64,000 nt of DNA from positions 1,984,001 to 2,048,000 of the forward strand of contig NZ_CP013611.1 in assembly GCF_001482385.1 (NCBI RefSeq), written 5' to 3'. The first letter of the stretch is position 1; every line of letters starts with the position of its first letter. The notes beneath the pieces are model-generated. The model was not told the DNA's origin. It searched no databases and saw nothing but the letters and a program-made list of their open reading frames with translations. The DNA is from Pseudoalteromonas rubra (GTDB taxonomy: Bacteria > Pseudomonadota > Gammaproteobacteria > Enterobacterales > Alteromonadaceae). The position numbers and the translations under genes are program-made. Below, piece by piece: positions 29,422 to 37,945 of the stretch.

Positions 29422-30609
29422 ATGAAAACACTACAATACGCTTTACTGGCGGCCGGACTGGCACACTTATCCGTGCATGCCCAGGGTCAGCACCATGATC
29501 AAACAGCCTTTCAGATCAAAGAAGATACGCTGACAAAACACGCGCTCACGCCCCTGCTCAATATAGACACGCAGCAATTCCTGTTTAGTAATACCCTCCA
29601 GCAAACAGACTGGGAAAGCACGCTGGCAACCCTTGCGCCCCATTTGCAGGACCAACTGGAAACTCTGTTGCACTGGGCCGGTCACGCCAGCATCAACCCC
29701 AAGTTATTGCTCGCACTGATGGAACAACACAGTCAGCTGCTCTCCGCGCCGACACCAGCAGCATTTGAAAGGCCGTTTGGTCTGTTAGTGACACCATCCG
29801 GATTTTCAGCACAGCTGGAAGCACTGACCCATGCACTGTCACAGCACTTTTATGCGTATGAACAATGGCAAAGTCAGCAACGCAATCAGGTGCAGCATAC
29901 AGTATCTGACCACCTCCATCATCAGGCGCTCACTGTCACGCCAGCTACCTTTGCACTAAGCGCTGTACTGGATGATGCTAGAGCCTTTGCTCAGGTGGCC
30001 GGACAATACCAGTCCTACTTTGGCGATGCATTACTCAACCCCGCTGCGCGCTCAGCAACGCCGGATGTTGAGTCTATCGCCATCAGTAATAATTTTTATC
30101 TTAATTTCCCCTGGCCATCAGGCTATGCCTGGTACAGTGGCGGCGCTCATTCCAATACCGGCTCGGGCTACCCCTACTCCTCGCTGGATTTCAACAATAA
30201 CTCTGGTGGCTGGGGATCCAATACTCCCTGGGTTCAGGCAGCGCATGGTGGCACCGTGACACGTTATTCACGCTGTAACATCCGTATTACGCACCCCAGT
30301 GGCTATGCAACTCAGTATTACCACATGGATGCACTTCAGTATCAAACCGGTGACGTGATTGATGCCGGGGCCTGGCTGGGCCGATATGCCAATGACTACA
30401 ATACGGCACTGTGCCAGGGCGGTCAGTCCAGCGGACCTCATTTACACTTCTCCCTGCTGTATAATGGGCGCTTTGTTTCTTTGCATAACACCTACATCAG
30501 CGGTTACCGGGTCGATGTGGGCAACTACAATTACGACGACAACTGCAACCGTTTTTACTTTGAGCGCAATGGCTACCGTACCTGTGCCTGGCGTGCGCTC
30601 TACCGATAA
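29422..30609 (+). CDS. Secreted LasA-like M23 metalloprotease
   Basis: 395 residues: signal peptide (1-20), propeptide (about 21-220) and an M23A peptidase domain (about 221-395) closely like Pseudomonas LasA. Zinc ligands are H243, D256 and H342; H301 and H340 match the LasA catalytic histidines, each at a constant offset of 220 from LasA mature numbering as I recall it. The GAHSNTGSGYPYSSLDF, YYHMD and GPHLHFSLLYNG motifs are diagnostic. The family cuts Gly-Gly bonds in elastin and in some bacterial cell walls, so roles in nutrient gain or lysis of competitors are plausible. It sits between the EAL pseudogene and csgD. Confidence 0.93.
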   Translation: MKTLQYALLAAGLAHLSVHAQGQHHDQTAFQIKEDTLTKHALTPLLNIDTQQFLFSNTLQQTDWESTLATLAPHLQDQLETLLHWAGHASINPKLLLALMEQHSQLLSAPTPAAFERPFGLLVTPSGFSAQLEALTHALSQHFYAYEQWQSQQRNQVQHTVSDHLHHQALTVTPATFALSAVLDDARAFAQVAGQYQSYFGDALLNPAARSATPDVESIAISNNFYLNFPWPSGYAWYSGGAHSNTGSGYPYSSLDFNNNSGGWGSNTPWVQAAHGGTVTRYSRCNIRITHPSGYATQYYHMDALQYQTGDVIDAGAWLGRYANDYNTALCQGGQSSGPHLHFSLLYNGRFVSLHNTYISGYRVDVGNYNYDDNCNRFYFERNGYRTCAWRALYR

Positions 30610-30873: not shown

Positions 30874-31572
30874 ATGATGTATTCAGACAATCAAACGCGT
30901 GGTGCTCTGTTCGTCCTGACAGACCAAAAGACCAACACGCTGAGTCAGGATTTCCTCATGTTTGTCAAAATGCTTGAGGCTTGCGGTAACAATATCAAGG
31001 TCGATACCCGCCTGCCAATCACTGAGCACAGAGCGCACTACCAGCTGTTTCTGGTCGATGTCAGCCACCGCGAATGTCGCGATTTACTCAGCGCACAACT
31101 CAGAGCGTTAGCACAACATCACAGCGTCTTACTATTTAATGCCTGCCCGGATACCCTGAACGAGCAAACTGCACTGCTTGCCAACGTCAAAGGTGTGCTC
31201 TACCAGGGCGCCTCGCCGGAAAGTCAATTCAAAGGCATTCAGCGCGTGCTGGGCGGCGAATTATGGTTTGGCAGAGGCGCTATTTCACTGGCGTTCAGCG
31301 CCCTGATGCAGCGCCTGCCACAAGCGCTGCCAGCACTGTCAGACGAACAAAGAGACATTACGCTGGCCTCACTCACTAAACGCGAAAAGTCGGTGATCAG
31401 ACTGCTCGCTGATGGGGCCAAAAACGACGATATTGCCGATTCTCTGAATATCAGTAGTCATACCGTCAAAACCCATATTTACAGCGCGTTTAAAAAGACA
31501 AACTCGCGCAATCGGATTGAGCTGGCAAACTGGGCACAGCAGCACATCCCCTTCGGTGGACTGGCCAATTAA
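30874..31572 (+). CDS. csgD: CsgD-like LuxR-type regulator
   Basis: 232 residues: an N-terminal receiver-like domain (about 10-135) lacking the usual acidic cluster, as in CsgD, and a LuxR-type HTH (about 165-225; LTKREKSVIRLLADGAKNDDI and SSHTVKTHIYSAFKK). CsgD activates curli genes in enterobacteria. Here the gene converges on csgG, sharing the bases TTAA (31569-31572) for both stop codons, and lies within the curli cluster, so control of the curlin operon is likely. Start may be ATG 30874 or the next codon. Confidence 0.88.
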   Translation: MMYSDNQTRGALFVLTDQKTNTLSQDFLMFVKMLEACGNNIKVDTRLPITEHRAHYQLFLVDVSHRECRDLLSAQLRALAQHHSVLLFNACPDTLNEQTALLANVKGVLYQGASPESQFKGIQRVLGGELWFGRGAISLAFSALMQRLPQALPALSDEQRDITLASLTKREKSVIRLLADGAKNDDIADSLNISSHTVKTHIYSAFKKTNSRNRIELANWAQQHIPFGGLAN

Positions 31573-32351
31573 CCCGCTTGCTGCTCAGGTTTAGCAGCCC
31601 ATACACCTTTTTCGAGGCCCTGATGCACTAACAACGTCAGGGCTTTTTCAATCGCCTGAGTCACACAAATATGCATGGGCTCATTTTCACTGTATCCGGC
31701 TTCCGCTTCGGCCAGGCGTTTATAGCTAACGTAACGAAAAAATCCTGCACGCATTTCCTTTGACAGCACTTTTTTGCTGGTCGCAACCGACAGCAAAACC
31801 TGGCCCGTACGGACATCCACCGCGCGCAGGTAAATACTAATGGTATCTTCGCGATATAGCTCAGATGCGCCAATCCCAAAGTACTCCATCCCCATGCCGC
31901 CGGTTTTGATATTGGCATCATAACTGATGATGCCCCCCTCGAAGATCAGCTTAGCATGCGTCAATGGTGGCAGGCTGTTTGCATTTTCCTGGTCCTGCAT
32001 TGCCGCCCGGGTGATCTTACGCTCGGTCAGCAGGTTTTGCAGCCCTTCACGTTCAATGGGAATGAACCAGTCCGTTTCATGCAGCGCCTGCATCAAAATT
32101 GAGTTGGCCCCCTGCGTCACTGCCGTCGAAAATGAACTGACGTTTTCCTGGGGTTTATATTGTCCGGTCTGGTCCCGAAATGAATATACAGAAACCGGGA
32201 TAGGTCCGCGTGGCGTTGGCAATGCTTTTAATTCGCTGAAGACTTCAGTGGCTGCCAGCGGTTGTGCCTTCGCCATCGGCGGTGGCAAAACAGGGATGCT
32301 GCTACAGGCACTCAGCAATAACATAAAACAGGTAATACTCAGGTACTTCAT
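31569..32351 (-). CDS. csgG: Curli secretion channel CsgG
   Basis: 260-residue lipoprotein that forms the outer-membrane curli export pore. Lipobox LLLSAC gives C16; the body has PVSVYSFRDQTGQYKP, GANSILMQALHETDWFIPIEREGLQNLL (read in pieces) and the late region VDVRTGQVLLSVATSKKVLS typical of CsgG. It is the last gene of the curlin-csgE-csgF-csgG run; its ATG overlaps the csgF stop by one base. Confidence 0.96.
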   Translation of the reverse strand: MKYLSITCFMLLLSACSSIPVLPPPMAKAQPLAATEVFSELKALPTPRGPIPVSVYSFRDQTGQYKPQENVSSFSTAVTQGANSILMQALHETDWFIPIEREGLQNLLTERKITRAAMQDQENANSLPPLTHAKLIFEGGIISYDANIKTGGMGMEYFGIGASELYREDTISIYLRAVDVRTGQVLLSVATSKKVLSKEMRAGFFRYVSYKRLAEAEAGYSENEPMHICVTQAIEKALTLLVHQGLEKGVWAAKPEQQAG

Positions 32352-32767
32352 TAACCAAACCTCGGCACTTCCAGTGTTGTAATATCACCCGTCAGCGTGT
32401 TGGTGATCTGCACCGTGATGGAATCCGGTGTACTGGTGATCACCTGGATTTCATAATCCCCACTCATAAACGTCGAGTCTTTATCAAAAATACTGTCTTC
32501 GACTTCATCACCAAACGCCGTGGACGTAATTTCCCTGACCATGCGATTCAGATAAGTCCGCTCCAGCGACTCCTGGAATCGGTCACCATAGGATTTTTCA
32601 ATCACTGGCGCACGATGTTTATTTTGAGCCTGTGCCTTGTTTAATAACATGTTGGCATTGAGAGGGTTGCCGCCGAACGACGGATTAATGGGCTTATAAA
32701 CCAATTCAGTCGCATGCAGCGACAAACTGCATAGTGCCCCCAAGCAACCTAGTATTGTTGTTTTCAT
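32351..32767 (-). CDS. csgF: Curli assembly factor CsgF
   Basis: About 138 residues with a signal peptide (1-18). The mature N-terminus has ELVYKPINPSFGGNPLN, the conserved CsgF segment that plugs the CsgG pore. In E. coli CsgF couples secretion to nucleation on CsgB. Start taken as ATG 32767; a GTG three codons upstream is possible. The gene abuts csgE and csgG, indicating one transcript. Confidence 0.94.
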   Translation of the reverse strand: MKTTILGCLGALCSLSLHATELVYKPINPSFGGNPLNANMLLNKAQAQNKHRAPVIEKSYGDRFQESLERTYLNRMVREITSTAFGDEVEDSIFDKDSTFMSGDYEIQVITSTPDSITVQITNTLTGDITTLEVPRFG

Positions 32768-32769
32768 TG

Positions 32770-33162
32770 TTACCACCCGCTTGTTGCTAAATCTGGAGAG
32801 TGTTGCTGATGCTGTGCGCTGGCCATGGCATCCATAATGGCAAATAACGCCGTCTCGACGCGCGCTTTTAACGGTCCGCCGCGACGTCCCATGGCTGTGG
32901 CATAAACCAGCTGGTTGTTCATAAATACCTGTAACCGCGTACCCGCGCGCGGCAACACGGTTTCTTTAATGGTGATATTCACACCTGCGGTGCCCGGTAC
33001 ATCGCGCCACAACTGCGAAAAATCAAAATAAAACTGATAGCCAAAGCGGCTGATACTCTGGTCAATAACCAGTCCTCCCAGCTCGACTTCCTCATCGGCG
33101 CCCTGACTGTGTGGTATGACGCTCAAAAGCAAAATACCGAGAATAAATAGCGTATACTTCAT
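32770..33162 (-). CDS. csgE: Curli assembly factor CsgE
   Basis: About 130 residues with a signal peptide (1-21). Typical CsgE residues: GLVIDQSISRFGYQFY, the IKETVLPRAGTRL segment and RRGGPLKARVETALFAI. CsgE caps CsgG from the periplasm and delivers curlin subunits. ATG 33162 is used because it begins the signal peptide; the upstream GTG at 33204 would translate through a stem-loop. Confidence 0.94.
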   Translation of the reverse strand: MKYTLFILGILLLSVIPHSQGADEEVELGGLVIDQSISRFGYQFYFDFSQLWRDVPGTAGVNITIKETVLPRAGTRLQVFMNNQLVYATAMGRRGGPLKARVETALFAIMDAMASAQHQQHSPDLATSGW

Positions 33163-33173
33163 AACAACTACGT

Positions 33174-33203
33174 TGGCCACAAAACCACCCGGTTTTGTGG
33201 CCA
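33174..33203 (-). other. Strong stem-loop between curlin gene and csgE
   Basis: TGGCCACAAAACC and GGTTTTGTGGCCA form a perfect 13-bp stem with a 4-base loop, ending 7 bp after the curlin stop codon and 12 bp before the csgE start. No long T-run follows on the minus strand. It may protect the upstream curlin mRNA or partly terminate, lowering csgEFG expression relative to the curlin subunit; this is inference from position. Confidence 0.75.
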
Positions 33204-33209
33204 CCTGGC

Positions 33210-34730
33210 TTACTGCTGCGTCACAGTCGCAACGTTATAGTCACCAACCTGAGTAATATTCACAACCTGGCCATTGCCACTCACCCCACCTTCAACCAGG
33301 TTGCCAAAGCCGTCCTGATTAATCTGGATGTTGTTATCGCTACCATTGACCACAAACGCACCTGAACCAACACCGGCAACAAAGTTCGCGCCGCCCGTTT
33401 GTTCAATGGCGATGTCATTGCCACTGCCCTCAAGCATCAAATCGATGGCGTTCAGTTCACCGCTTTGTACCAAATCAAGCTGATTCAGCCCACTTTCCGC
33501 CACAGAAGCAAGTGTCACTGACACACCGTTACTGTCGCCTGTTTGCGCGACATTCAGCATGTTGTTGTTACTGCTCAGTGCGTTGTCCGGATACGATGAC
33601 TGCAATACAACTTCGTTGTTATCACCATTTTGGATTACGCCGACTTCACTGCCTGTGCTGTTAAATTTCGCAATGTGCAGCTCATTATTGTCGCCCAGCT
33701 GCAAAGTGCTGTACTCATTGTCATCACCCACGGCACCAAGGTAAGCCTGGTTGTCGTTACCACGCTGCTGTGCATCGAAGTCATTGTCATTGCCCACTAC
33801 ATCGAACGTAGTCTGGTTGTTGTCTCCCAGCTGTGCCACAGTGACATAGTTGCTGTCACCGCTGAACATGGTAGAAGTCATGCGGTTGTCATTGCCTTCC
33901 TGTTCCAGATCGACCCGGTTGCTTTCACCCTGAAGTTCAGCCATGTCAACCCGGTTACCATTGCCTGCGCTTTGCTCAACCCGTAACTCGTTGTCGCTGC
34001 CCGTCAGCACATCAATACTGAATTTGTTGTAGTTCCCTTCCTGAGAGAGCGTCAGGTCATTATCGTTGCCCTGTAAAACAGTCAGATTCAGCTCGTTGTA
34101 TACGCCATCTTGATCAACTTCAATGCTGTTCTGATCGCCCTGCACTCGGTCAATGTTCACTTCACCCCAGGAACCCAGCTGGCTGGCAACAACCTGGTTA
34201 TTGTTACCTTGCATGTCAGTATTGTAGAACCAGTGGCCACCGCTGCTTTGCTCAACATGAACCTGGTTACCATCACCATTAATGGTGTTTGTCACTTCAT
34301 TATTGATTCCAAGGTAAGCAACACCACGCTGGGTGATGTTTAAGTTATTGTCATTACCATTAAGCTCTGTCAGTGTGCCATTGCCCTCGCCATCCTGACT
34401 GTATTCTTGCGTATTGCCATCGCCTACGACGGTTGCTTTGGTCAAGTTGCCAATGCCAGCCTGCGCAGCTGTGGTGATATTGTTATCTCCAGCAACCGAC
34501 AAGTCACTCACATTGGACTCGCCCTGTTGTGAACTAGTCAGCACATTTCCCGCGCCATTATTTGATTGCTGGGTTACCGTCAGCGTATTACCCGTGTTGT
34601 CAATTTGCATCAGCTGTGCCAACTCTGACGTTGAAGCTGCTTTTGCTTCTGCGTCAGCTGCCTGTGCCACGCTGACACCAGATAAAGCCAGTGCAATTGC
34701 ACAGCAGGTCAGTGATTTTGAAAATTTCAC
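33210..34730 (-). CDS. Very large curlin-repeat amyloid protein
   Basis: 506 residues from the GTG at 34730, which has AAGGAG at proper spacing; the longer frame to 34835 has no such site and spoils the signal peptide. The signal peptide (KFSKSLTCCAIALALSG, cleaved after AQA) is followed by about 19 curlin-like repeats of roughly 20-27 residues. Their pattern is N-x-hydrophobic-x-hydrophobic-x-Q-x-G-x-x-N, e.g. NDLTLSQEGNYNKF and NYVTVAQLGDNNQT. The repeats are Asn/Gln/Gly/Asp-rich and acidic, with few charges of the basic type. E. coli CsgA and CsgB are about 150 residues with five repeats, so this is more than three times longer. No second curlin gene is seen nearby, so it may serve as both major subunit and nucleator. 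It heads the csgE-F-G run. Confidence 0.93.
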   Translation of the reverse strand: MKFSKSLTCCAIALALSGVSVAQAADAEAKAASTSELAQLMQIDNTGNTLTVTQQSNNGAGNVLTSSQQGESNVSDLSVAGDNNITTAAQAGIGNLTKATVVGDGNTQEYSQDGEGNGTLTELNGNDNNLNITQRGVAYLGINNEVTNTINGDGNQVHVEQSSGGHWFYNTDMQGNNNQVVASQLGSWGEVNIDRVQGDQNSIEVDQDGVYNELNLTVLQGNDNDLTLSQEGNYNKFSIDVLTGSDNELRVEQSAGNGNRVDMAELQGESNRVDLEQEGNDNRMTSTMFSGDSNYVTVAQLGDNNQTTFDVVGNDNDFDAQQRGNDNQAYLGAVGDDNEYSTLQLGDNNELHIAKFNSTGSEVGVIQNGDNNEVVLQSSYPDNALSSNNNMLNVAQTGDSNGVSVTLASVAESGLNQLDLVQSGELNAIDLMLEGSGNDIAIEQTGGANFVAGVGSGAFVVNGSDNNIQINQDGFGNLVEGGVSGNGQVVNITQVGDYNVATVTQQ

Positions 34731-35440
34731 CTGGTTCTCCTTAGAGTTATTAATCGTTTTCGCAATGATTTCCTTCAACTCGCACTGCGTGATTGTCTTT
34801 ATATATTTGCGTATCGCCTTAGTGGAGGTTGCCAACTCCTGACCTATACGCCAACGCAGTACTGTGTTTCAACCGGGTTATCTTTCGCTCCCCTTGTTAT
34901 AACCAAAGCCCGGTGGGCTGCTGTTATCAATCAGGGGGGCGTTCATACTCGCTTAGCCATCTAAGCCTGAGTCCGCTGCCCAGCTTGTGGCTGCGCAGTG
35001 TTTGCACGTTATTTTTTCGGACTCGTGTAGTCACTCTAGAGCGTCGCATTGGCCAGGGGAATGAGAAATAATTTTGAATCTTGTAACTTGATTAAATTCA
35101 TACAGTTAAAGCCACAACCATTGAATTACCGATATTAATACCAAGTATTCTCACAAAATAGTATGAGTTACAAAATAGTTAACCAAATGATAAAAACCAG
35201 CAAAAAAGCATGAATAATGCTGAACAAAAATCATCCAAACTACAAAAAAGTTGGATTTTAACGACGTAAACTCATTTTAAAATTGCATCCCTAATTCAGG
35301 CTGTTTTAGCGTGACCTGAGTTGCCAAACCGAGTTATCAACCGCCAGCCCGAAGGCCTGGCGGATCACACATCATGCCACTTAGTCGAGCACACACCATG
35401 GCCTCATGGTCAATAACTCAACTAAATATATCTAGGACAA
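34731..35440. other. 710-bp intergenic region with structured leader candidate
   Basis: No gene. The part nearest the curlin gene holds several possible stems: GCGTAT/ATACGC enclosing GGAG/CTCC (34809-34852), alternative pairings of ACCGGG or GGTTAT with the same ATAACCCGGT stretch (about 34870-34920), CTTAG-CCAT-CTAAG (34952-34965) and GAGTCCG/CGGACTC (34969-35024). Bases 35080-35330 are AT-rich and may hold promoters for both directions. A GC-rich hairpin CCGCCAG/CTGGCGG lies at 35341-35363. Confidence 0.5.
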
Positions 35441-37945
35441 ATGATGAAATTAAAACTTTCTGCCTTAACATTGGCATTACTGCCAGTTTTCAGTGGCGCA
35501 GCACAAGCTGCAGTACAAATCACAGCGACAGAAAAAACCAATGACAACAGCGTGATGGTGGTTTTCAAACAGGATGCGTCCAGTGCACTGAGAGCACAAG
35601 CCCGTAACCTGGTGAAAGCCCGTATCTCAGACAACAATGCCGATGAAATCGATGATCGTTACAAGCACGTTCTGGCAGGCCGCCTGGCGAACTTCAAGCT
35701 GGATGGGATCAGCAGCAAAGAAGCCATTGCTAAGCTGGCGAAGCACCCTGCGGTAGAGTACGTTGAGCCTGATTATCAAGTGAAAGCGCTGGGCATTCCG
35801 GATGATGCACGCTTCGACGAGCTTTGGGGCCTGCACAACACAGGTCAAACTGGCGGCGTAGAAGATGCCGACATCGATGCGCCTGAAGCCTGGGATATCA
35901 GCATTGGTTCACGTGACGTGATCGTTGGGGTTATCGACACAGGGGTTGACTATACGCACCCGGATTTGGCGGCGAACATGTGGCAAAACCCAGGTGAAAT
36001 CCCTGGAGACGGTATTGATAACGACAACAACGGCTACATTGATGACATTTACGGTGTTAACGCCATCACAGGCTCTGGTGACCCAATGGATGATCAGGGC
36101 CATGGTACACACGTATCAGGTACCATAGGCGCAACGGGTAACGATGCCACCGGCGTCGTCGGCGTAAACCAGGAAGTCTCAATCGTCGGCTGTAAGTTCC
36201 TCAACTCTTCGGGCAGTGGGTCAACCTCAGATGCCATCGAATGTATCGATTACATGGTATCGCTGAAGCAAGCGGGCCATAACGTCCGCGTACTGAACAA
36301 CAGCTGGGGGGGTGGCGGTTTCAGCCAGACACTGGCCGATGCCATTACCGCCAGTGAAAATGCGGATATCCTGTTTGTCGCGGCAGCCGGTAACGGTGCT
36401 GTTGATAATGACAGCAATCCACATTACCCATCAAGCTATGAGCATGACAGCGTTTTCTCAATTGCTTCAACCACAGACAACGACACTATGTCATCGTTCT
36501 CACAGTGGGGCCTGGCTTCTGTAGACATGGGTGCTCCTGGTAGCGCCATTCTGTCGACTGTACCGGGCGGCGGTTACAGCAGCTTCTCAGGTACCTCAAT
36601 GGCGACACCCCATGTTGCTGGTGTTGCAGCATTGGTATTGTCTATTGACCCAACACTGGACGCGATTTCTCTGAAAAACCTGCTAATGCAAAGCGGTGAT
36701 GCAAATGCAGCACTGGATGGCAAAACGGTCGCTGGTACACGCCTGAACGCACACCAGGCACTGATCGATGCGGATCCGGCACCAGGCTTCAGAATGGGTG
36801 TCACGCCAGGTGGCCAGGAGATCACCGCAGGTGAAACTGCCAGCTATGAATTCAGCTTCACTTCGGTAGCTGACTGGCAGGGCGACATTGCTCTAACGCT
36901 GGACAGCCCACTGCCTGGTGCCGTGTTATCACAAAGCACCGTCACTCCGGGTAACACAGTGACACTGACAGTGCCTACCACTGCAGATACTCAGTGGGGC
37001 AACTACAGCTTCACCGTTAACGCTACCTCTGGCGATTTGGCAGACAGCAAGTCCGTTAACTTATCTGTGTTACCGCAAGGTCTGAGCGATTTCAGCTATG
37101 ACAATACAACTGCGGTAGACATTCCTGACAACGACGCCACAGGCATCAGTTCAGTCATCACGGTTGCTGACGACATCACCATTTTCGACAGCAACACGCT
37201 GGTGGATATCACTCACACTTATATTGGCGATCTGTTGGTAACCCTGACTTCTCCAGCAGGTACTTCAGTGACACTACACAACCGTGCAGGTGGTAGCGCC
37301 GATAACCTGGTTGAGACCTTCAATTCTGGCGCCTTCAATGGTGAAGCAGCACGCGGTGACTGGACGTTGAATGTATCGGATAACGCTGGTGTGGATACCG
37401 GTACACTGAACAGCTGGACGCTGACATTGACCGGCCTGGGTGAAGTGTCTGCACAGCCACCTGTGGCAGGTTTCAGTTTTGAGAAAAGTGGCCTGAGCGT
37501 TGCCTTTACTGACAGCAGTACCGATGCCAACAATGACATCGTCAGCTGGCAGTGGGATTTCGGTGATGGTAACAGCAGCGCTGATGCGAACCCAACTCAT
37601 ATCTACACTGCGTCAGGCACTTACTCTGCCACCCTCACCGTCACTGACAGTGAAGGCAACAGCAACAGCACCACACAGGAAGTCACTGTCAGCTCAGATG
37701 ATATTGCGCTGGAAGTCGTGCGTACTAATAAGTCACGCCTGGGCTTCTATCGGGTATCACTCTCCTGGTCTGGCAGCAGCGCTGAGCAGGTAGATGTTTA
37801 CCGCGATGGTACGCTACTACGCACAGTCAATAACTCAGGTCAGTTCCGAGATTTCGGTCGTGACCCGGCAATCAGCGGCTTCACTTACAAGATCTGTCAG
37901 TCAAGTGATATCTGCTCAAACGAAGTAAGTGTACGTTTCGAGTAA
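35441..37945 (+). CDS. Secreted subtilisin-like protease with P and PKD domains
   Basis: 834 residues: signal peptide (1-23), I9-type propeptide (about 25-115), S8 catalytic domain (about 125-450) with D166 (VIDTGVDYTHPDL), H221 (GHGTHVSGT), N318 and S386 (SGTSMATPHVAG), a linker, a proprotein-convertase P domain (about 553-666), a PKD domain (about 671-748, WDFGDGNSS) and a C-terminal FN3-like domain (about 755-834). The C-terminal modules are typical of exported proteases of marine bacteria and may bind substrate or help secretion. A ribosome site AGGA precedes ATG 35441. The gene is transcribed alone and ends in a strong terminator. Confidence 0.95.
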   Translation: MMKLKLSALTLALLPVFSGAAQAAVQITATEKTNDNSVMVVFKQDASSALRAQARNLVKARISDNNADEIDDRYKHVLAGRLANFKLDGISSKEAIAKLAKHPAVEYVEPDYQVKALGIPDDARFDELWGLHNTGQTGGVEDADIDAPEAWDISIGSRDVIVGVIDTGVDYTHPDLAANMWQNPGEIPGDGIDNDNNGYIDDIYGVNAITGSGDPMDDQGHGTHVSGTIGATGNDATGVVGVNQEVSIVGCKFLNSSGSGSTSDAIECIDYMVSLKQAGHNVRVLNNSWGGGGFSQTLADAITASENADILFVAAAGNGAVDNDSNPHYPSSYEHDSVFSIASTTDNDTMSSFSQWGLASVDMGAPGSAILSTVPGGGYSSFSGTSMATPHVAGVAALVLSIDPTLDAISLKNLLMQSGDANAALDGKTVAGTRLNAHQALIDADPAPGFRMGVTPGGQEITAGETASYEFSFTSVADWQGDIALTLDSPLPGAVLSQSTVTPGNTVTLTVPTTADTQWGNYSFTVNATSGDLADSKSVNLSVLPQGLSDFSYDNTTAVDIPDNDATGISSVITVADDITIFDSNTLVDITHTYIGDLLVTLTSPAGTSVTLHNRAGGSADNLVETFNSGAFNGEAARGDWTLNVSDNAGVDTGTLNSWTLTLTGLGEVSAQPPVAGFSFEKSGLSVAFTDSSTDANNDIVSWQWDFGDGNSSADANPTHIYTASGTYSATLTVTDSEGNSNSTTQEVTVSSDDIALEVVRTNKSRLGFYRVSLSWSGSSAEQVDVYRDGTLLRTVNNSGQFRDFGRDPAISGFTYKICQSSDICSNEVSVRFE

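What the first reader, a model, noticed from the sequence alone, without database searches (positions are those of the whole stretch)
33210..34730. One giant curlin gene in place of the small CsgA/CsgB pair
The only curlin in this cluster is 506 residues with about 19 repeats, against five repeats in the known CsgA and CsgB. It is encoded directly ahead of csgE, csgF and csgG, with csgD nearby. A single long molecule with many repeats could act as both nucleator and fibre subunit, and could give a fibre of different width or stability. The repeats vary in length (roughly 20-27 residues), with insertions such as WFYNTDMQ, so it is not just tandem copying. Usually a long curlin must still pass the narrow CsgG pore unfolded.
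Basis: partly seen in the sequence, partly recalled or inferred. Interest (0 to 1): 0.7.

Follow-up and report, generated by a model that had tools for sequence, protein, structure and literature searches.

The report
Long curlin without its nucleator gene
The large curli protein in this marine bacterium is a normal size for its relatives; what is unusual is that the small partner gene thought to start and anchor the fibres was not found anywhere in the genome, while the rest of the system, and a linked secreted protease, remain.

Summary
The gene is real: window 33210-34730, minus strand, 506 aa, 19 curlin repeats, followed by csgE, csgF and csgG, with csgD convergent. It is a CsgA-type curlin of ordinary size: a long CsgA lies beside csgEFG in all 86 csg-bearing genomes among 108 of its genus, and long curlins are published (up to 22 repeats in 2012, 62 in 2023). 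It did not replace the CsgA/CsgB pair: 20 of the 86, and 58 of 65 scored loci from other genera, also carry a short csgB, with a CsgA about as long. What is unusual is that csgB was not found in this genome or in 65 more of the 86. On a CsgEFG tree this needs two changes, read as two losses: one in this Pseudoalteromonas clade, one in a Colwellia-like clade. In E. coli, CsgB is the reported link between CsgF and CsgA, so these species, which keep CsgF, must nucleate and anchor fibres differently. My paper searches showed no report of this. Separately, the divergent neighbour, a deseasin MCP-01-type protease, was found in 77 of 78 csg-bearing family genomes but 1 of 217 others. Nothing was tested biochemically.

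The parts
33210..34730 (-). csgA: long major curlin, 506 aa, 19 repeats
   Evidence: PF07012 E 1.9e-25; repeat count; AlphaFold2 beta-strand ladder, mean pLDDT 84.2, pTM 0.80; PDB curlins 8c50 and 8enq by profile
32770..33204 (-). csgE, adaptor of the secretion channel
   Evidence: PF10627 E 1.9e-27
32351..32776 (-). csgF, surface factor; retained although csgB was not found
   Evidence: PF10614 E 2.2e-27
31569..32351 (-). csgG, outer-membrane secretion channel
   Evidence: PF03783 E 3.1e-82
30874..31572 (+). csgD-like LuxR-type regulator, convergent with csgG
   Evidence: GerE E 1.7e-17; best NCBIfam match is CsgD NF007505, 88.7 bits, below its cut-off of 250
34731..35440 (.). 710-bp intergenic region, no csgB and no recognisable relic; divergent promoters of csgA and the protease presumed
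   Evidence: Short frames only; tblastn with 20 CsgB proteins gave no match upstream of this csgA at E 10
35441..37945 (+). deseasin MCP-01-type secreted subtilase (S8, P-domain, PKD), divergent from csgA
   Evidence: Pfam domains; PDB 3vv3 deseasin MCP-01, E 1.6e-167; co-occurrence with csg; position

Best explanation
[quoted passage not shown] Shown by sequence: 19 repeats predicted to fold as one ladder of strands, with csgE, csgF and csgG in the same gene cluster, and no csgB found in the genome. Inferred from the known curli pathway: the chain crosses CsgG unfolded with help from CsgE and CsgF, then folds outside; each subunit adds about 19 rungs along the fibre axis (about 9 nm at the published 4.8 A spacing) rather than about 5. 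Because csgB was lost once in the ancestor of this Pseudoalteromonas clade, and separately in a Colwellia-like clade, nucleation and anchoring must be done by CsgA itself, most likely held at the pore by a direct CsgF-CsgA contact that E. coli lacks. That last step is inference.
For: Identity and gene order. csgB not found genome-wide. In one search, 20 of 108 genomes score 214-230 bits with the CsgB profile (these 20 supplied the profile) and the next best match is 40.9 bits, inside a long csgA; as a control the same alignment scores 127.7 bits or more on all 28 CsgB of nearer other genera, but only 30-103 bits on 30 from a distant clade. Long CsgA is general and co-occurs with csgB. Two changes on a CsgEFG tree of 151 rows: (shuffled mean about 50). 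Constraint on the csgB-less system: among 9 P. rubra-group genomes dN/dS is 0.041 for csgA and 0.0 for the last 115 residues of CsgF; csgE, csgF and csgG matched in 86 of 86 loci. In E. coli CsgB connects CsgF to CsgA (PMC6957492, passages; PMC10133297, passages). In the Colwellia-like clade the CsgF part reported to bind CsgB is remodelled: 9 of 27 conserved columns replaced, against 0-5 in 25 (overlapping) control clades, while the CsgG-binding part has 0 of 19.
Against: In the window's own clade CsgF shows only 1 of 27 conserved columns replaced, within the control range, so CsgF remodelling is not seen there by that test. The raised CsgF/CsgG branch ratio on that stem (rank 1 of 80) is shared by CsgE and rests on a very small CsgG branch (6.4 substitutions). 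Against CsgE plus CsgG together the two stems rank 7 and 9 of 104. These tests were made after seeing the pattern and there are only two events. The tree is of csg genes, not species. No fibre, nucleation or binding experiment on these species was seen.
Confidence: 0.72

Rival explanations
1. The nucleator role passed to an unrelated, or very diverged, surface protein encoded elsewhere, so a functional CsgB still exists.
For: Sequence searches cannot exclude a non-homologous nucleator, and the CsgB profile scores as low as 30 bits on CsgB of a distant clade.
Against: In 108 genus genomes the CsgB profile finds nothing above 41 bits outside the 20 known CsgB. PF07012 at E 1 finds no second curlin gene in the 7 Colwellia-like or 2 P. 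rubra-group genomes tested (only scattered matches of 15 bits or less away from csgA), while both controls show their 163-168 aa csgB. In 65 of 66 csgB-less Pseudoalteromonas loci the upstream neighbour is the same protease as in the csgB-bearing species (the other ends at a contig edge).
Confidence: 0.14
2. The long curlin evolved as a combined replacement of the CsgA/CsgB pair, for example by fusion or repeat expansion.
For: Only one curlin gene was found.
Against: A CsgA of the same length exists beside csgB in 20 of 86 Pseudoalteromonas, and a long one in most of the 58 csgB-bearing loci of other genera. Loss is not accompanied by lengthening: core 457 against 459 residues, the csgB-less ones slightly shorter (Mann-Whitney p 1e-4). 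CsgB's N-terminal motif is not found in the csgB-less CsgA N-termini above shuffles.
Confidence: 0.03
3. Without CsgB the secreted curlin is released as soluble or loosely aggregated protein, as in E. coli csgB mutants, so the system makes no cell-bound fibre and serves as matrix protein or is decaying.
For: E. coli lacking CsgB or CsgF releases unpolymerised CsgA (PMC10192328, section 12).
Against: Decay is unlikely: long open frames and csgEFG matches in 66 of 66 csgB-less Pseudoalteromonas (csgG of G026 shows one in-frame stop in the matched stretch) and dN/dS 0.041 for csgA in 9 genomes. Unanchored secretion without decay is not excluded. The 15.5-repeat curlin polymerised in vitro as a purified single protein (PMC10192328, passages).
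Confidence: 0.11

Closest known systems
E. coli CsgA/CsgB curli system (type VIII secretion)
   Same: Curlin repeats, CsgE, CsgF, CsgG and a CsgD-like regulator
   Different: 19 repeats instead of 5; one gene cluster with csgD convergent; csgB not found; csgC not looked for
Pseudoalteromonas/Alteromonas csgBAEFG operons (Dueholm 2012, PMC3521004; P. tunicata, PMC2536512)
   Same: Long CsgA reported for orders outside Enterobacteriales, order A-E-F-G, csgD opposite and downstream
   Different: Those reports include csgB (the P. tunicata paper writes csgABEFG); here it was not found
R15.5, Pontibacter korlensis curlin (PMC10192328; that PDB 8c50 is this protein is recalled, not from a call)
   Same: Long multi-repeat beta-solenoid curlin; 8c50 matches the profile at E 3.9e-52
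   Different: 15.5 regular repeats; the window protein has 19 repeats of variable length with conserved insertions
Deseasin MCP-01 of Pseudoalteromonas sp. SM9913 (PDB 3vv3)
   Same: The linked protease matches its catalytic domain at E 1.6e-167 and has S8, P-domain and PKD
   Different: Studied as a casein- and collagen-degrading enzyme; nearby curlin genes were noted and the surrounding genes judged of little relation to its regulation (PMC6606773, passages)

Membership tests
CsgA, major curlin | Multiple curlin repeats (PF07012) | tested here: met
   E 1.9e-25, 6 stretches; 19 repeats counted
CsgA, major curlin | Beta-solenoid fold | tested here: met
   Prediction only: AlphaFold2 from an alignment of 49 sequences gives a regular ladder of strands, mean pLDDT 84.2, pTM 0.80; PDB curlins by profile. 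Foldseek against the PDB gave no match at E 0.001 or better
CsgA, major curlin | Secreted, with an N-terminal signal and targeting segment | tested here: inconclusive
   Signal-like N-terminus by eye; no signal predictor was run; CsgG binding not testable
CsgA, major curlin | Forms amyloid fibres | not testable with these tools
   needs experiment
Curli (type VIII) secretion system | CsgG, CsgE and CsgF present | tested here: met
   PF03783, PF10627, PF10614
Curli (type VIII) secretion system | Separate nucleator CsgB (E. coli type) | tested here: not met
   Not found genome-wide (control). So it is a curli system, but not of the CsgB-dependent type
Deseasin MCP-01 subtilases | S8 catalytic domain, P-domain and PKD domain | tested here: met
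   3vv3 match over residues 120-450

The most novel reading that the evidence does not exclude
In this clade, and independently in Colwellia-like bacteria, the curli chain has lost its CsgB link, so CsgF engages the long CsgA directly. The system also has a dedicated secreted protease, the deseasin MCP-01 family, which processes, remodels or is tethered by the curli fibre. A well-studied marine 'collagenase' would then be a curli-system enzyme.
Probability: 0.3. Interest if true: 0.75.

Novelty: new variant of a known kind. Interest (0 to 1): 0.5.

Why it matters
CsgB is treated as the nucleator and as the bridge between CsgF and the fibre. Two natural losses, with CsgF and csgA kept, make the questions 'what does CsgF do without CsgB?' and 'can a long curlin nucleate itself on the cell?' directly testable in marine laboratory strains. 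The tight link with the MCP-01 protease offers a native context for a model marine protease that has been studied without one. CsgB-free curli would also interest builders of living materials.

Tried and rejected
Rejected: size as novelty (published, and the family norm); fusion or expansion in place of the pair; recent tandem duplication; a csgB relic upstream of csgA (best match in any csgB-less upstream region E 0.087); CsgB's N-terminal motif moved into CsgA (no better than shuffles; only 34 of 78 CsgB fitted the motif pattern used). A different clade-specific N-terminal signature, S-x-[SN]-x-[LI], is present in 59 of 66 csgB-less Pseudoalteromonas CsgA and in 0 of 85 others.

Led nowhere: Foldseek against the PDB (178 matches at E 10 or better, none at 0.001). 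In one search my rule for trimming the signal peptide misplaced the start of the window protein, so core lengths are taken from the alignment-based. In one search my pattern for the protease catalytic triad was too strict (71 of 156 frames), and I draw nothing from it; in the same of 9 loci were lost from the intergenic comparison, and I draw nothing from that either.

Dropped rows: loci L232 (second csg locus of one genome) and L260 (contig edge) were left out of the csgB count and trees (65 of 67 family loci used). A distant clade was left out of the CsgE/F/G rate and column tests (122 of 151 rows; 121). Locus L086 begins at csgA; its csgB status rests on the genome-wide search. The family set of 295 and the order set of 394 are samples drawn from larger groups. 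In one search at most 3 candidates per genome were scored, at most 9, so a poorly ranked protease orthologue in a csg-free genome could be missed. Of 26 protease matches outside the family I fetched 20; the six left out have frames of 1157-1210 aa.

Literature: 10 of 10 searches used. None of the rows listed showed a report of csgB-less curli in these genera or of a family-wide curli-deseasin link; only the top rows (at most 20) of each are shown, and the library lacks most subscription papers.

Full report
What is there. The curlin gene occupies window 33210-34730 on the minus strand (506 aa from a GTG start). It is followed on that strand by csgE (32770-33204), csgF (32351-32776) and csgG (31569-32351); a csgD-like regulator (30874-31572, plus strand) converges on csgG. 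Pfam gives Curlin_rpt at E 1.9e-25. By the ladder of conserved glutamines and asparagines I count 19 repeats, the last cut by the C-terminus, plus a half repeat before the first. AlphaFold2 with an alignment of 49 sequences predicts a regular succession of strands, read as a solenoid, with mean pLDDT 84.2 and pTM 0.80. The closest solved sequences are PDB 8c50 (a curlin-repeat protein, E 3.9e-52) and 8enq (major curlin subunit, E 2.7e-6); a Foldseek search of the model against the PDB found nothing at E 0.001 or better.

The size is ordinary. PF07012 and csgG are each found in 86 of 108 genomes of the genus. I fetched the csg loci of the 85 other genomes. Every one of the 86 has a long curlin frame (484-583 aa stop to stop) and matches to csgE, csgF and csgG. 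All 80 titled loci, from Pseudoalteromonas, Alteromonas, Bowmanella, Aliiglaciecola, Thalassomonas, Colwellia and others, have a curlin frame of at least 484 aa; the window's nearest titled relatives are P. rubra. Of 67 csg loci from other genera of the family, 64 have a curlin frame of at least 475 aa; the exceptions are L236 (419 aa), L232 (313 aa, a second csg locus of its genome) and L260 (contig edge). Dueholm 2012 (PMC3521004; text part 2, section 14 and passages) reports CsgA up to 529 aa and 22 repeats and the Pseudoalteromonas csgBAEFG order. Sleutel 2023 (PMC10192328; sections 6 and 12 and passages) reports 4-62 repeats and concludes that repeat number changes length along the fibre axis, not width.

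The small partner is missing. A short csgB directly upstream of csgA occurs in 20 of 86 Pseudoalteromonas loci. A profile of those 20 (A1) scores 214-230 bits in the same 20 of the 108 genomes, as it must; the next best match is 40.9 bits, inside a long csgA. As a control for sensitivity, the same alignment scores 127.7 bits or more on all 28 CsgB proteins of nearer other genera, but only 30-103 bits on 30 from a distant clade, so a CsgB as diverged as those might not stand out. On this evidence 66 of 86, including this genome, lack csgB. In the other genera, 58 of 65 scored loci have csgB; the 7 without form one clade. PF07012 at E 1 in those 7 genomes and 2 P. rubra-group genomes found no second curlin gene (only scattered matches of 15 bits or less away from csgA), while both positive controls showed theirs.

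Two losses. On a tree of CsgE, CsgF and CsgG (151 rows, quick IQ-TREE) presence or absence of csgB needs 2 changes, against about 50 for shuffled labels. In the genus-only tree the 20 csgB-bearing species are one side of a branch with 100% ultrafast bootstrap. I read this as two losses, because csgB is present through the rest of the sampled family and Dueholm found homologues of all csg genes but csgC in every order of Gammaproteobacteria examined. The tree is of csg genes, not of species; some deep branches are weak, and in the larger tree four csgB-bearing Pseudoalteromonas fall outside the rest of the genus.

Loss is not decay and not lengthening. Among nine P. rubra-group genomes dN/dS is 0.041 for csgA, 0.080 for csgE (last 130 residues), 0.013 for csgG (last 225) and 0.0 for the last 115 residues of CsgF. 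The CsgA core is 457 residues (median) without csgB and 459 with it in Pseudoalteromonas. All 20 tested ladder glutamines are present in every csgB-less Pseudoalteromonas and Colwellia-like CsgA.

Mechanism. In E. coli, pull-downs gave a linear chain CsgG - CsgF N-terminus - CsgF C-terminus - CsgB - CsgA, and CsgF did not bind CsgA (PMC6957492, passages); CsgA was also not recruited to CsgF condensates (PMC10133297, passages). Species with CsgF but no CsgB break that chain. The simplest repair is a direct CsgF-CsgA contact with CsgA nucleating itself. Dueholm already suggested that some species might make fibres without a nucleator. Supporting but not decisive: in the Colwellia-like clade, 9 of 27 columns conserved in the middle and C-terminal part of CsgF are replaced, against 0-5 in 25 overlapping csgB-bearing control clades, while the CsgG-binding part has 0 of 19. 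In the window's clade the same test gives 1 of 27, no more than controls, so there CsgF was kept nearly unchanged at those sites; that suggests its conserved half does more than bind CsgB. Branch-rate ratios are raised on both loss stems (CsgF/CsgG ranks 1 and 4 of 80; against CsgE plus CsgG ranks 9 and 7 of 104), but CsgE is raised too on the Pseudoalteromonas stem. A new N-terminal signature (S-x-[SN]-x-[LI]) is present in 59 of 66 csgB-less Pseudoalteromonas CsgA and in 0 of 20 csgB-bearing Pseudoalteromonas, 0 of 7 Colwellia-like and 0 of 58 other family CsgA; its meaning is unknown.

A linked protease. The divergent neighbour (35441-37945) is an S8, P-domain and PKD subtilase matching deseasin MCP-01 (PDB 3vv3, E 1.6e-167). 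It lies close upstream of, and divergent from, the csg genes in 85 of 86 Pseudoalteromonas loci (the miss is a contig edge) and 64 of 67 other family loci (misses L232, L236, L260); I did not check for small genes in between. By genome it is found in 86 of 86 csg-bearing and 1 of 22 csg-free Pseudoalteromonas, and in 77 of 78 csg-bearing and 1 of 217 csg-free family genomes (exceptions G378 and the weaker match in G145), with the scoring caps told under Tried and rejected. Of 26 matches in other families of the order I fetched 20: 16 have curlin genes beside the protease, in 10 of them with no csgE, csgF or csgG match in the fetched stretch. Of the four misses, one ends in a partial curlin-like frame at a contig edge, two are 45-46% relatives with no csg gene, and one has a csgD-like gene but no curlin. 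Shared ancestry and joint deletion inflate the significance of such counts. A 2019 paper on MCP-01 noted curlin genes near its gene in one strain and judged the surrounding genes of little relation to its regulation (PMC6606773, passages). I infer a role in curli maturation, turnover or tethering; no data here tell which.

Verdict. The finding as written is half right: one long curlin and no partner found is true; a giant curlin in place of the pair is not. What remains interesting is a twice-evolved CsgB-less curli system and a conserved curli-linked protease.

Noticed in passing
35441-37945 (+); same position in 149 of 153 csg loci examined (window included): Deseasin MCP-01-type protease divergent from the curli genes, found in 77 of 78 csg-bearing and 1 of 217 csg-free family genomes.
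   Followed up: yes
The best csgD match (58-61% identity) lies elsewhere: about 27-53 kb away in the 7 where it is on the same contig, on another contig in 3.
   Followed up: partly
N-terminal part of csgA, just after the signal-like segment (- strand, near 34650): S-x-[SN]-x-[LI] signature in 59 of 66 csgB-less Pseudoalteromonas CsgA and in none of 85 others.
   Followed up: partly
Loci L209, L210, L213, L215, L216, L217, L222: CsgF middle and C-terminal part heavily changed in the Colwellia-like csgB-less clade (9 of 27 conserved columns).
   Followed up: partly
Loci L277 and L283: Long curlin with no short csgB in the fetched stretch, in two other families of the order: possible further losses, not checked genome-wide.
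   Followed up: no
Genome G146: Curlin repeats over the Pfam cut-off in a genome without a csgG match at E 1e-20.
   Followed up: no
Loci L252, L237, L264, L265: Curlin order altered (long before short), and four curlin-like frames in L252.
   Followed up: no
29422-30609 (+): M23 peptidase gene upstream of csgD on the same strand.
   Followed up: no
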